Shown here one piece after another: positions 23,005 to 26,526 of a stretch of 60,991 nucleotides of DNA. Position 1 is the first letter of the stretch. Every line of letters starts with the position of its first letter. The position numbers were made by a program, and so were the translations under genes. The notes below the pieces were generated by a model. That model was given only the letters and a program-made list of their open reading frames with translations. It was not told where the DNA came from and did no database searches. This DNA is from Pseudomonadota bacterium. GTDB taxonomy: Bacteria; Pseudomonadota; Gammaproteobacteria; Burkholderiales; Burkholderiaceae_C. The stretch lies in NCBI GenBank assembly GCA_021847345.1, contig JAJZTW010000018.1, positions 1 to 60,991 of the forward strand, written 5' to 3'.

Positions 23005-24159
23005 TCACCGCGCCGAGGCTCGCCGCGCGCGCACCGCGTCGGCCAGTTCGGTGACGAGTCGAATCGAGTCGTCCCAGCCCAGGCAGGCGTCGGTGATGCT
23101 CTGGCCGTAGGTCAGGCTGGCCGGGTCGTGCTGCCCGGGGTTGAATTTCTGCGCCGCGCCGACCAGGTGGCTCTCGGCCATGACCCCGAAGATGCGACGC
23201 TCGCCGGCGCGCAACTGCGCCGCCAGGTCGGCGGCCACGACCAGCTGGCGCTCGTGCTGCTTGAGGCTGTTGGCGTGCGAGCAGTCGATCATCAGGCGGC
23301 AGGGCAGCGACGCGGCCTGCAGCTGCTCGCAGGCGGCGCGCACGCTGGCCGCGTCGTAATTGGGCTGGCTTCCCCCGCGCAGGATCACGTGCGTGTCCTG
23401 GTTGCCGCGGGTCTGCACGATGGATACCTGCCCGCTCTTGTGCACCGACAGGAAGGAATGCGCACGCCGCGCGGCCTGGATGGCGTCGATGGCGATGCGC
23501 AGGTTGCCGTCGGTGCCGTTCTTGAACCCGATGGGCGCCGACAGGCCCGAGGCCAGTTCGCGGTGTACCTGGCTTTCGGTGGTGCGCGCTCCGATGGCGC
23601 CCCAGGAGATCAGGTCGCCGATGTATTGCGGGGAAATCACGTCCAGGAATTCACTTCCCGCGGGCACGCCGAGACGGTTGATGTCGATCAGCAGCTCACG
23701 CGCGATGCGCAGGCCGTCGTCGATGCGATAGCTCTGGTCGAGGTACGGGTCGTTGATCAGGCCCTTCCACCCCACGGTGGTGCGCGGCTTCTCGAAATAC
23801 ACCCGCATGACGATTTCCAGCGCATCCGCGTGGCGCCGGCGCAACTCGAGCAAACGCTCGGCGTACTCGAGCGCGGCACGCGGATCGTGGATCGAGCACG
23901 GTCCGATGACCAGCAGCAGGCGGTCGTCCTGCCCCTGCACGATCCTGTGCACGGCGCGCCGCGTGTCGCCGACCAGGGTTTCCACCGCCGTGCCGGCGAT
24001 GGGCAGGCGGCGGATGAGCTGCTCGGGCGTCGGCAGCGGGCGCACATCCTCGACGCGTTCGTCGTCGGTCGAGGACGTGCGCTCGGGAGTCTGCATGCCG
24101 GGCCTGTCGGCGGCCTGGCGGGGTGCGAAATCGGGACTGGCGGGGTCGAGCATGGACAT
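23005..24159 (-). CDS. aroG: 3-deoxy-7-phosphoheptulonate synthase, class I (DAHP synthase)
   Basis: It condenses phosphoenolpyruvate with erythrose 4-phosphate, the first step to Phe, Tyr and Trp. The 384-residue class I enzyme shows LLLVIGPCSIHDP, MRVYFEKPRTTVGWKG, SWGAIGARTTESQ, GFKNGTDGN and MIDCSHANS. Two ATGs (24159, 24153) are served by AGGAG sites. Upstream is an aromatic-rich leader peptide and a terminator, so transcription is probably controlled by attenuation rather than only by enzyme feedback. Which of the three aromatic amino acids inhibits the enzyme cannot be told. Confidence 0.95.
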   Translation of the reverse strand: MSMLDPASPDFAPRQAADRPGMQTPERTSSTDDERVEDVRPLPTPEQLIRRLPIAGTAVETLVGDTRRAVHRIVQGQDDRLLLVIGPCSIHDPRAALEYAERLLELRRRHADALEIVMRVYFEKPRTTVGWKGLINDPYLDQSYRIDDGLRIARELLIDINRLGVPAGSEFLDVISPQYIGDLISWGAIGARTTESQVHRELASGLSAPIGFKNGTDGNLRIAIDAIQAARRAHSFLSVHKSGQVSIVQTRGNQDTHVILRGGSQPNYDAASVRAACEQLQAASLPCRLMIDCSHANSLKQHERQLVVAADLAAQLRAGERRIFGVMAESHLVGAAQKFNPGQHDPASLTYGQSITDACLGWDDSIRLVTELADAVRARRASAR

Positions 24160-24200
24160 CTCCTGGTGCTCCTGGTTCGGAAACCGGCAGGGCCCCGGCG

Positions 24201-24232
24201 AAAAAAAACCGCCGGGCTCGGCCGGCGGTTTT
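24201..24232 (-). terminator. Attenuator (intrinsic terminator) of the DAHP synthase gene
   Basis: On the leftward strand AAAACCGCCGG and CCGGCGGTTTT form a perfect 11-bp stem with a 6-base loop, followed by four more Ts (eight in a row). It lies between the leader peptide stop (24250) and the aroG start (24159), so it must be bypassed to express aroG. Its 5' arm CCGCCGGC is complementary to GCCGGCGG inside the leader peptide gene (24275-24282), which gives a competing antiterminator stem. Confidence 0.85.
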
Positions 24233-24249
24233 CGAGGAATTCTTGGGGT

Positions 24250-24333
24250 TCAGCTCAAACTCTTCCCTCTCCCTCCGCCGGCGCGGTGCGAGAACCAAAA
24301 AAAGCCGTAAAACCAAAAGCGCGGGGAAGTCAT
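24250..24333 (-). CDS. Aromatic-rich leader peptide of the DAHP synthase gene
   Basis: This small gene encodes 27 residues with the run F-W-F-Y-G-F-F-W-F at positions 6-14: five Phe, two Trp and one Tyr. The codons are TTT, TGG, TTT, TAC, GGC, TTT, TTT, TGG, TTC. The stop is 17 bases before the attenuator stem. A ribosome stalled on these codons for lack of charged aromatic tRNAs would leave GCCGGCGG (24275-24282) free to pair with the terminator's 5' arm, letting RNA polymerase read into aroG. A further pairing, CTTCCC (24324-24329) with GGGAAG (24262-24267), could compete when translation is absent. No strong ribosome binding site is visible. Confidence 0.82.
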   Translation of the reverse strand: MTSPRFWFYGFFWFSHRAGGGRGKSLS

Positions 24334-24356
24334 GGCAGGTCGAGTCTGGAAGGCCC

Positions 24357-24362
24357 AGTATA
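24357..24362 (-). promoter_or_regulatory. Candidate -10 box for the leader-aroG transcript
   Basis: TATACT (5 of 6 consensus bases) on the leftward strand lies about 24 bases before the leader peptide ATG. Initiation about 7 bases downstream would give a leader RNA of about 190 nt before aroG. No good -35 box stands at the right distance. Confidence 0.45.
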
Positions 24363-24427: not shown

Positions 24428-24964
24428 TCAGCGCCGCCGCGGCCACATGCGGTGCATCGTGTCGTCACGCAGCACGACGGCGTGGTAGAGCGCGCCCGCC
24501 ACGTGCAGCCCGATGGCGCCGAGCAGAACGTAGGCCACGAACTGATGCACGTCGCCGAGCTCGTGGGCCCACGCGGCGCCCGCGGGCGCCAGCGCCGGCA
24601 GGCTCAGCACGCCCGCCAGGTGGACCGTCCACGCACGCGACGAGGCATTCGCCCAGCCCAGCAGCGGCAGCACGAGGAACCCGGCATACAACACCCCGTG
24701 CACCAGTTTGGCCAGGTGTTCCTGCCAGACCGGTCCGGCCAGCAGCGCGGGAGCTCCGGCCGCCGCGCGCCACACCAGGCGAAGCACCATCAGCGCCAGG
24801 ATGCTGGTGCCCACGCCGATGTGCCAGGCGATCAGCCCGACGGGCTGGGTGTCGCGGCGAACGTCTGGCATCAGCCACGCCAGCACGAACTCCACCGCGA
24901 TGAGAAGCACGATGGCCCAGTGCATGGCTCGGGCGACGGGGTTGTAGACGGACGTTTCGGACAT
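24428..24964 (-). CDS. Cytochrome b561-family membrane protein
   Basis: This 178-residue inner-membrane protein has four hydrophobic helices and the His residues expected for two b-type hemes: RAMHWAIV (about 15), LIAWHIGVG (about 48) and, in the last helix pair, DVHQFVAYVLLGAIGLHVAGALYH. Relatives pass electrons from quinol or accept them from superoxide. A small G/C-rich palindrome follows the stop, then the aroG leader region. The substrate is not predictable. Confidence 0.88.
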   Translation of the reverse strand: MSETSVYNPVARAMHWAIVLLIAVEFVLAWLMPDVRRDTQPVGLIAWHIGVGTSILALMVLRLVWRAAAGAPALLAGPVWQEHLAKLVHGVLYAGFLVLPLLGWANASSRAWTVHLAGVLSLPALAPAGAAWAHELGDVHQFVAYVLLGAIGLHVAGALYHAVVLRDDTMHRMWPRRR

Positions 24965-25062: not shown

Positions 25063-26526
25063 TCAGCCGGTCCCGCCGACCGTGACGCGGTCGATGCGCA
25101 AGGTCGGCTGGCCCACCCCCACCGGCACGCTCTGGCCTTCCTTGCCGCAGGTTCCCACGCCCGGGTCGAGTTGCATGTCGTTGCCGATCATGCTCACGCG
25201 GGTCAGCACGTCGGGGCCGTTGCCGATCAGCGTGGCGCCCTTGACCGGGTATTGCATGCGCCCGTTCTCGACCCACCACGCCTCGCTGGCGGAGAACACG
25301 AACTTGCCGCTGGTGATGTCGACCTGGCCGCCGCCGAAATTCACCGCGTACAGACCGCGATCCAGGCTGGCGACGATTTCCCGCGGATCCTTGTCCCCGG
25401 CCAGCATGTAGGTGTTGGTCATGCGGGGCATCGGCACGCTCGCATAGCTCTCGCGCCGGGCGTTTCCGGTGGGCTTGCGCTTCATCAGGCGCGCATTGAG
25501 CGAATCCTGCATGTAGTCGACCAGCACGCCATCCTCGATCAGCACCGTGCGCTCGGTCGGGTGGCCCTCGTCGTCGATGTTGAGCGAACCGCGGCGTCCG
25601 GGCAGCGTGCCGTCGTCCAGCACCGTCACTCCGGGCGCCGCCACGCGCTGGCCGATGCGTCCGGCGAAGGCGCTCGAGCCCTTGCGATTGAAGTCGCCCT
25701 CGAGCCCGTGCCCGATCGCTTCGTGCAACAGCACGCCGGGCCAGCCCGGCCCCAGCACCACGCTCATCTCGCCGGCCGGCGCGGGGCGCGAATCCAGGTT
25801 CAGCACGGCCTGGCGCACGGCCTCCTCGACATGCTCGCGCAGCGTGGCCTCGTCGAAACGGCTGAGCGCGTAGCGACCGCCACCGCCCGACGAACCGGTC
25901 TCGCGCCGCCCGCCCTGCTCGACGATCACGCTGACGCTCAGGCGCACCAGCGGGCGCACGTCGGCGGCCAGCAGGCCGTTGGCGCGCATGACCAGCACGA
26001 CGTCGTATTCGCCGGCCAGCCCGGCCATGACCTGGACCACGCGAGGGTCGACGTCGCGCGCCATCTCGTCGGCGCGCGCCAGCAGCGCCACCTTGGCCGC
26101 CGAGTCCAGCGCCGGCAGCGGATCCAGCGCTTCGTACAGCTGGTGCCCACCCGTCAGCTGCGACACCGGCCCCAGGCGCACGCGCCCGCGGCCCTGGCGC
26201 GCGATGGCGCGAACCGTGCCCGCGGCCTGCATCAGGCGTTCGGCGGAAATGTCGTCGGAGTAGGCGAAGGCCGTCTTGTCGCCGTCGATGGCGCGGATGC
26301 CGAAACCCTGCTCGATACCGAAACTGCCGCTCTTGACCAGTCCCTCCTCGAGACTCCAGCTTTCCGAGCGCGTGTACTGCAGGTACACGTCGGCATCGTC
26401 CAGGCGATGCTCGAACGCGCTGGCCAGCGCGCGCTGCAGGGTGGACTCGTCGATGCCGTAGGGCTCGAGCAACAGTCTGCGCGCCTCGTTCAGGCGCAGC
26501 AAGGCGGGTTCGGTGGCGGTATTCAT
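25063..26526 (-). CDS. tldD: Metalloprotease TldD
   Basis: TldD works with TldE (PmbA) to cleave unfolded peptides, including microcin B17 precursor and CcdA in E. coli. The 487-residue protein has the zinc motif HEAIGHGLEGD (His268, Glu269, His273), and the conserved C-terminal cysteine region DPGVGTCGKEGQ. Its partner gene is not in the window. It follows moaC by 57 bases on the same strand. Confidence 0.95.
   Translation of the reverse strand: MNTATEPALLRLNEARRLLLEPYGIDESTLQRALASAFEHRLDDADVYLQYTRSESWSLEEGLVKSGSFGIEQGFGIRAIDGDKTAFAYSDDISAERLMQAAGTVRAIARQGRGRVRLGPVSQLTGGHQLYEALDPLPALDSAAKVALLARADEMARDVDPRVVQVMAGLAGEYDVVLVMRANGLLAADVRPLVRLSVSVIVEQGGRRETGSSGGGGRYALSRFDEATLREHVEEAVRQAVLNLDSRPAPAGEMSVVLGPGWPGVLLHEAIGHGLEGDFNRKGSSAFAGRIGQRVAAPGVTVLDDGTLPGRRGSLNIDDEGHPTERTVLIEDGVLVDYMQDSLNARLMKRKPTGNARRESYASVPMPRMTNTYMLAGDKDPREIVASLDRGLYAVNFGGGQVDITSGKFVFSASEAWWVENGRMQYPVKGATLIGNGPDVLTRVSMIGNDMQLDPGVGTCGKEGQSVPVGVGQPTLRIDRVTVGGTG

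What the first reader, a model, noticed from the sequence alone, without database searches (positions are those of the whole stretch)
24153..24362. Leader-peptide attenuator in front of the DAHP synthase gene
A 27-residue open frame has eight aromatic residues in a nine-residue run (five Phe, two Trp, one Tyr), in GC-rich DNA where TTT codons are rare. Its stop is followed by a perfect 11-bp intrinsic terminator with eight Ts, then aroG. An 8-base segment inside the leader (GCCGGCGG, 24275-24282) can pair with the terminator's 5' arm, placed so that stalling on the aromatic codons would free it. The mixed Phe/Trp/Tyr content suggests one switch sensing all three end products of the pathway. 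Leader attenuation is well known for pheA and trp operons; I do not know it as an established control of betaproteobacterial DAHP synthase genes.
Basis: partly seen in the sequence, partly recalled or inferred. Interest (0 to 1): 0.78.

Follow-up and report, generated by a model that had tools for sequence, protein, structure and literature searches.

The report
Aromatic leader-peptide attenuator before aroG
Just ahead of the gene for the first enzyme of aromatic amino acid synthesis lies a tiny gene packed with Phe, Trp and Tyr codons and followed by a transcription terminator; the arrangement recurs across many Burkholderiales and some Xanthomonas relatives, and it likely lets the enzyme's gene be read only when those amino acids run short.

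Summary
The leader ORF is 24333-24250 (-), MTSPRFWFYGFFWFSHRAGGGRGKSLS; of 542 short ORFs in the window it alone has 6 or more aromatic residues in ten. A perfect 11-bp terminator with eight Ts follows. Of 72 covariance-model hits at E<=1.1e-5 in 300 genomes of the order, 71 lie directly ahead of an aroG-type gene, in 14 families; the other is chance. Xanthomonas and Dyella have it too. Four classical segments recur: 1:2 protector, 2:3 antiterminator, 3:4 terminator. The antiterminator motif GGCGG sits in all three reading frames (28/7/43 of 78 distinct leaders), so RNA rather than peptide is conserved. Aromatic codons lie 11 to 4 codons before GGCGG. In 41 of 78 leaders a -10-like box ends 6-10 nt before the AUG, predicting leaderless leader mRNAs; the window's copy has 23 nt between box and AUG. 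The gene served is the predicted Phe-type isozyme. A leader attenuator on a DAHP synthase gene is known from Corynebacterium (aroR), so this is a new, order-wide member of a known kind. The response to amino acids is untested.

The parts
24357..24362 (-). -10-like box TATACT; possible -35-like CTGGCG at 24386-24381 (TTGGCG in some relatives)
   Evidence: Read; a similar box recurs at about this place in the genus. Not reported by the strict scanner. Promoter function inferred.
24250..24333 (-). leader ORF, 27 codons, no Shine-Dalgarno-like motif seen
24292..24318 (-). control codons: F W F Y G F F W F
   Evidence: in the family the aromatic block lies 11 to 4 codons before GGCGG
24283..24294 (-). 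segment 1, TTCTCGCACCGC, starts at the last Phe codon
   Evidence: folds with segment 2, -15.0 kcal/mol; P 0.95 for its inner pairs in RNA that ends before segment 3; pairs counted
24267..24282 (-). segment 2, GCCGGCGGAGGGAGAG; 24282-24275 is the antiterminator arm
   Evidence: complement of segment 3; pair counts
24221..24232 (-). segment 3, AAAACCGCCGGC: terminator 5' arm and partner of segment 2
24201..24215 (-). segment 4 and T-run: CCGGCGGTTTTTTTT
   Evidence: 3:4 hairpin -17.8 kcal/mol
23005..24159 (-). aroG, DAHP synthase (3-deoxy-7-phosphoheptulonate synthase), predicted Phe-type (Ser238)
   Evidence: TIGR00034 523.1 bits; Ser column

Best explanation
The sequence ahead of aroG encodes a 27-residue peptide packed with Phe, Trp and Tyr codons followed by a perfect terminator hairpin, and is predicted to work as a ribosome-mediated transcription attenuator. 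When charged aromatic tRNAs are plentiful the ribosome would pass the aromatic codons, segments 1 and 2 would re-pair behind it, and the 3:4 terminator would stop transcription before aroG. When they are scarce the ribosome would stall in the aromatic block; on its last codons it would cover segment 1, and segment 2 would pair with segment 3 before segment 4 is made, so RNA polymerase would read on into aroG. Shown by sequence and calls: the ORF, the terminator, the alternative pairings, their recurrence and their placement. Inferred: transcription start, translation, stalling, termination and the response to amino acids. Phe is likely the main signal, with Tyr and Trp contributing.
For: Recurrence: 34 of 34 aroG loci fetched from the genus, family and two near families have the leader (L001-L034). 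In 300 genomes of the order, 71 of 72 model hits at E<=1.1e-5 lie directly ahead of an aroG-type gene, 14 families. Of 80 named aroG loci, 61 pass the ORF rule. Structure: next to GGCGG, 2:3 covaries, C-G 37 and U-A 20 of 78 distinct leaders. 1:2 and 3:4 helices on A1: 7 cells with two-sided changes, reached by 0 of 500 shuffles. 1:2 segments more stable than shuffles, mean z -1.09, and core paired upstream in 59 of 78 against 43.7 expected. GGCGG is kept in all three frames. Placement: aromatic fraction 0.64-0.96 at codons -11 to -4 before GGCGG and at most 0.13 at the codons after that, as far as 8 past GGCGG. Window RNA up to segment 3: P(2:3) 0.01 free and 0.97-0.98 with a ribosome on any of the eight aromatic codons; free, the best 1:2 fold beats the best 2:3 fold by 4.4 kcal/mol. 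TTT is 68% of leader Phe codons against 20% in aroG. No TrpR or TyrR-type match in the 93%-complete genome.
Against: At full length and equilibrium the terminator wins with or without a stalled ribosome (P 0.96 free, 0.93 and 0.96 stalled), so the switch must be kinetic. The folding is not specific to aromatic codons: in the window a stall on the preceding Pro or Arg already gives P(2:3) 0.77-0.79. A stall at the first Phe frees 2:3 only by removing a longer 5' stem, by 2.3 kcal/mol, with segment 1 uncovered; before segment 3 is made, segment 2 stays paired upstream (mean P 0.64-0.72 over 78) until the A site reaches codon -6 (0.48), -5 (0.16) and -4 (0.00). Over 78 leaders the free RNA up to segment 3 does not favour upstream pairing (P 0.39) over 2:3 (0.46). 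On A1 the two-sided changes of 2:3 are few (3 cells, reached by 26 of 500 shuffles), and the inner 1:2 helix is paired in 83.7% of cells with none. The pair next to the core is broken in 19 of 78. 11 of 78 1:2 segments have z above 0. The z-score of the whole window leader is modest (-1.59). Aromatic-poor versions exist (L118, L149, L172). No expression data were available.
Confidence: 0.9

Rival explanations
1. Phe-only switch: the attenuator is real but only Phe starvation moves it; the Tyr and Trp codons are passengers.
For: F in 78 of 78 leaders, F:Y:W 294:138:48; the isozyme served is the predicted Phe type; Corynebacterium aroR responds to Phe and not to Tyr (passages of PMC11802643).
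Against: Y in 75 of 78 and W in 46 of 78; the most aromatic columns are -7 (F 0.46, Y 0.45, W 0.05) and -6 (F 0.62, W 0.18, Y 0.14), and codons -6 to -4 are where stalls should open 1:2 most directly.
Confidence: 0.35
2. The hairpin is only a terminator for upstream transcription (the cytochrome b561-like gene or tldD), and the short ORF is chance.
For: The genes upstream run in the same direction.
Against: ORF composition far outside background; ORF, antiterminator and terminator recur together ahead of aroG in 14 families with compensatory change; a -10-like box sits between the upstream gene and the ORF.
Confidence: 0.04
3. The product acts in trans: the terminated RNA or the peptide has its own targets, as reported for S. 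meliloti trpL.
For: S. meliloti rnTrpL/peTrpL precedent (passages of PMC7298713); many family members are predicted to start at the AUG.
Against: The peptide tail differs between families and the RNA motif is kept in different reading frames, so peptide function is unlikely as the conserved role. A trans role of the RNA was not tested.
Confidence: 0.1

Closest known systems
Corynebacterium glutamicum aroR leader ahead of aroF (Neshat et al. 2014; seen only as retold in passages of PMC11802643)
   Same: Aromatic leader peptide ahead of a DAHP synthase gene; ribosome stalling raises transcription of the operon
   Different: Different phylum, Phe-Tyr-Phe residues, operon context; homology of the leaders not tested, original paper not held
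E. coli pheL-pheA and pheST attenuators (as retold in PMC11802643; structural details recalled)
   Same: Phe-responsive leader, alternative hairpins, terminator
   Different: They serve the Phe branch or the tRNA synthetase, not the common first step; in E. coli, TyrR and TrpR control genes of the aromatic pathway (passages of PMC5343134)
Sinorhizobium meliloti trpL (rnTrpL; passages of PMC7298713)
   Same: Leader RNA that starts at the AUG of the leader ORF, as predicted for about half of the distinct leaders here
   Different: Trp leader of trpE(G); the window's own copy is not predicted to be leaderless
Predicted attenuators ahead of DAHP synthase-tyrA operons in Vibrio (table from Merino's site, passages of PMC1173090) and ahead of Shewanella aroF (table in passages of PMC2659441)
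   Same: Attenuation proposed at a DAHP synthase gene
   Different: Tyr-type genes in other lineages; leader content not described in the passages seen

Membership tests
Ribosome-mediated (leader-peptide) transcription attenuators | Short ORF rich in codons for the pathway's end products | tested here: met
   8 of 9 residues aromatic; 1 of 542 short ORFs
Ribosome-mediated (leader-peptide) transcription attenuators | Intrinsic terminator between leader and gene | tested here: met
   11-bp stem, eight Ts
Ribosome-mediated (leader-peptide) transcription attenuators | Antiterminator exclusive with the terminator, freed by a stall on the control codons | tested here: met
   By prediction only: P(2:3) 0.01 free against 0.97-0.98 with a ribosome on any of the aromatic codons, in RNA that ends before segment 4; covariation. 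Stalls on two preceding codons give 0.77-0.79, and at full-length equilibrium the terminator wins
Ribosome-mediated (leader-peptide) transcription attenuators | Protector hairpin 1:2 | tested here: met
   -15.0 kcal/mol in the window, P 0.95 before segment 3 is made; mean z -1.09 over 78
Ribosome-mediated (leader-peptide) transcription attenuators | Measured change of read-through with the amino acid | not testable with these tools
   Needs expression data
Rfam leader families (Phe, Trp leaders and others) and T-box | Covariance-model match at gathering score | tested here: not met
   0 in the window; 0 in 20 named aroG loci; in 8 loci only an SRP RNA
Corynebacterium aroR-type leader | Common descent of leader or structure | not tested
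   Paper not held

The most novel reading that the evidence does not exclude
An order-wide general aromatic sensor governs entry into the shikimate pathway in Burkholderiales and Xanthomonadales, and in Burkholderiales it stands in for TrpR and TyrR, whose matches are rare there. In about half of its lineages transcription starts at the leader AUG itself, so that a ribosome must load on the bare 5' end of the nascent RNA: a leaderless attenuator whose RNA switch is independent of the peptide tail and of reading frame.
Probability: 0.4. Interest if true: 0.7.

Novelty: new member of a known kind. Interest (0 to 1): 0.52.

Why it matters
It offers a testable answer to how Burkholderiales could control the first step of aromatic synthesis: TrpR matches pass the family cut-off in 4 of 150 genomes of the order and TyrR-type matches in 1 of 150 (other regulators were not searched). 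It covers well-studied genera (Burkholderia, Paraburkholderia, Variovorax, Comamonas, Massilia, Xanthomonas) and matters for engineering aromatic production in them. The predicted leaderless start raises the question of how ribosome and polymerase are synchronised without a Shine-Dalgarno site.

Tried and rejected
Rfam: no family covers it; RF02917 (Burkholderiales-2) scored 21.9 bits against a cut-off of 67.9 at the terminator, and its four hits in 200 genomes of the order lie elsewhere than aroG, so rejected. NCBIfam gave no match to seven leader peptides and Pfam one sub-threshold match.

Model hits away from aroG (L110, L113-L117) were inspected and look like plain terminators. RNAalifold on A1 proposed only the terminator, not 1:2; 1:2 was named by me and then counted, so its counts lean towards it.

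The idea that the conserved tail SHRxGGGRG is a functional peptide was dropped: outside the genus the tail differs and the RNA motif shifts frame. The leader as a property of one aroG clade only: a FastTree of 192 proteins needs at least 18 changes of leader state, so losses or transfers are common; not pursued.

Literature: no paper on a Betaproteobacterial or Xanthomonad DAHP synthase leader in searches (listings; passages read). Two further searches served other points (leaderless leaders, another the feedback residue). The comparative paper of Vitreschak 2004 was not held under the DOI I tried and Panina 2001 was not looked up, so an earlier prediction cannot be excluded. That Ser against Gly at this position tells Phe- from Tyr-type enzymes is recalled (Cross et al. 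2013, not held).

Full report
Observation. The minus strand carries the ORF 24333-24250, encoding MTSPRFWFYGFFWFSHRAGGGRGKSLS, then a perfect 11-bp terminator (24232-24205) with eight Ts ending at 24201, then aroG at 24159. aroG matches TIGR00034 at 523.1 bits. Among 542 short ORFs of the window this is the only one with more than five aromatic residues in ten.

Relatives. The window's genome has three aroG-type genes; only this one has the leader. All 34 aroG loci fetched from the genus, family and two near families carry it (L001-L034); partial or other-paralog matches of three genus genomes (G015, G024, G025) were not fetched. Of the 16 further order-level loci (L035-L050), 11 lack it, and so do all 20 loci, which are mostly other paralogs or more distant genes, judged by the rule of 5 or more aromatics in ten. 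A covariance model built on 34 leaders was run on 300 genomes of the order. It gave 72 hits at E<=1.1e-5: 61 were matched to a listed downstream aroG by position (which matched 63 of the 83 hits entered, two of them weaker), 10 more by reading the DNA, and one, G048:C1, looks like a plain terminator. The 71 belong to 71 genomes and 14 families by the handles; 224 of the 300 genomes have an aroG-type gene at E<=1e-60, so the leader is far from universal at this threshold. In 274 genomes of the class, two hits outside the order (L246, L247) also precede aroG; the other five weaker ones (L248-L252) gave no aroG match. Of 80 named aroG loci, 61 pass the ORF rule. Of these, L223 has no terminator, and in L232 the rule picked a wrong ORF although a leader is there. 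L172, counted as negative, has a degenerate leader, and L198 could not be judged, with 52 nt of upstream sequence. Named bearers include Burkholderia, Paraburkholderia, Caballeronia, one Cupriavidus, Massilia, Janthinobacterium, Variovorax, Comamonas, Acidovorax, Xanthomonas and Dyella; the Polynucleobacter and Methylotenera loci and two Cupriavidus loci lack it, though another paralog in the same genome may have it.

Structure. Segment 1 (24294-24283) pairs with segment 2, segment 2 (24282-24275) with segment 3, and segment 3 with segment 4. On alignment A1 the 1:2 and 3:4 helices have 93.6% of cells paired and 7 cells with two-sided changes against a shuffled mean of 1.0; the inner 1:2 helix alone is at 83.7% with none. 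The 2:3 helix has 96.2% paired, but only 3 cells with two-sided changes, which 26 of 500 shuffles reach. On 78 distinct leaders the base before GGCGG and the base after CCGCC go C-G 37, U-A 20, U-G 1, A-U 1, and 19 unpaired. Related sequences are not independent, so such counts overstate significance. GGCGG exactly is present in 70 of 78 and CCGCC in 77 of 78. GGCGG falls in frame 0, 1 and 2 of the leader in 28, 7 and 43 leaders, so different amino acids are encoded over the same RNA motif.

Switch geometry. With codons counted back from GGCGG, aromatic residues fill positions -11 to -4 (0.64 to 0.96) and almost vanish after -3, whereas the stop codon wanders from 2 to 11 codons after GGCGG. 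In the window RNA up to segment 3, segment 2 is paired upstream with P 0.79 when free, as a 1:2 hairpin set on a longer 5' stem that beats the best 2:3 fold by 4.4 kcal/mol. With a ribosome on any of the eight aromatic codons 2:3 reaches P 0.97-0.98, but stalls on the preceding Pro and Arg also give 0.77-0.79. In RNA that ends before segment 3, segment 2 stays paired upstream over 78 leaders (mean P 0.64-0.72) until the A site is at -6 (0.48), -5 (0.16) and -4 (0.00). Stalls on the last aromatic codons therefore act by covering segment 1; earlier stalls would need segment 3 to displace 1:2. At full length the terminator dominates in each state tried (0.93-0.96), so the decision must be made during transcription. 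That is the usual assumption for attenuators, but it is not shown here.

Start of the leader. In 41 of 78 distinct leaders the best -10-like box (TAnnnT) ends 6 to 10 nt before the AUG. Of these, 34 are strong (score 5 or more), against a mean of 1.15 and a maximum of 4 in base shuffles. SD-like motifs are depleted (4 of 78 against 11.3 expected). 51 of 78 aroG genes have an in-frame ATG with one, a looser test. Many family members are therefore predicted to be leaderless; in the window 23 nt separate the -10-like box from the AUG.

Sensed amino acids. In the -11 to -4 block F is in 78, Y in 75, W in 46 and all three in 45 of 78 leaders; TTT is 68% of leader Phe codons and 20% of those in aroG. 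The gene served has Ser at the position held to mark Phe-type enzymes in 161 of 165 leader-bearing proteins, and Ala in 4 (L220, Xanthomonas, two Dyella); none has Gly, which 24 of 63 leaderless ones have. The meaning of that residue is recalled, not taken from a held paper. An E. coli AroG chain labelled Phe-sensitive has Ser there.

Known or not. The same kind of control on a DAHP synthase gene is on record for Corynebacterium (aroR). I found no report for this group in the searches named in Tried and rejected.

Noticed in passing
window 25063-26526 and 24428-24964 (-): tldD and a cytochrome b561-like gene lie upstream of the leader; in several leaderless relatives (L037, L156, L237, and by its look L159) the sequence just ahead of aroG resembles the end of tldD, suggesting the leader was gained or lost inside an old tldD-aroG pair.
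   Followed up: partly
L118, L149, L172: Aromatic-poor leaders that keep the terminator: possible decay or a change of signal.
   Followed up: partly
G000:C89 (L051) and G000:C31 (L052): Two further aroG-type genes without leader; L051 has Gly at the Phe/Tyr position (predicted Tyr type).
   Followed up: partly
L210, L220, L223, L225: Records titled Gemmataceae, Devosia, Anaerolineae and Melainabacteria hold an aroG 60-63% identical to the window's, and L220 has the leader too: possibly mis-binned metagenome contigs.
   Followed up: no
plasmid collection: Several 'plasmid' records are chromosome-sized (for example 2.2 Mb Neisseria gonorrhoeae and 4.9 Mb E. coli records), so they may be mis-filed chromosomes.
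   Followed up: no
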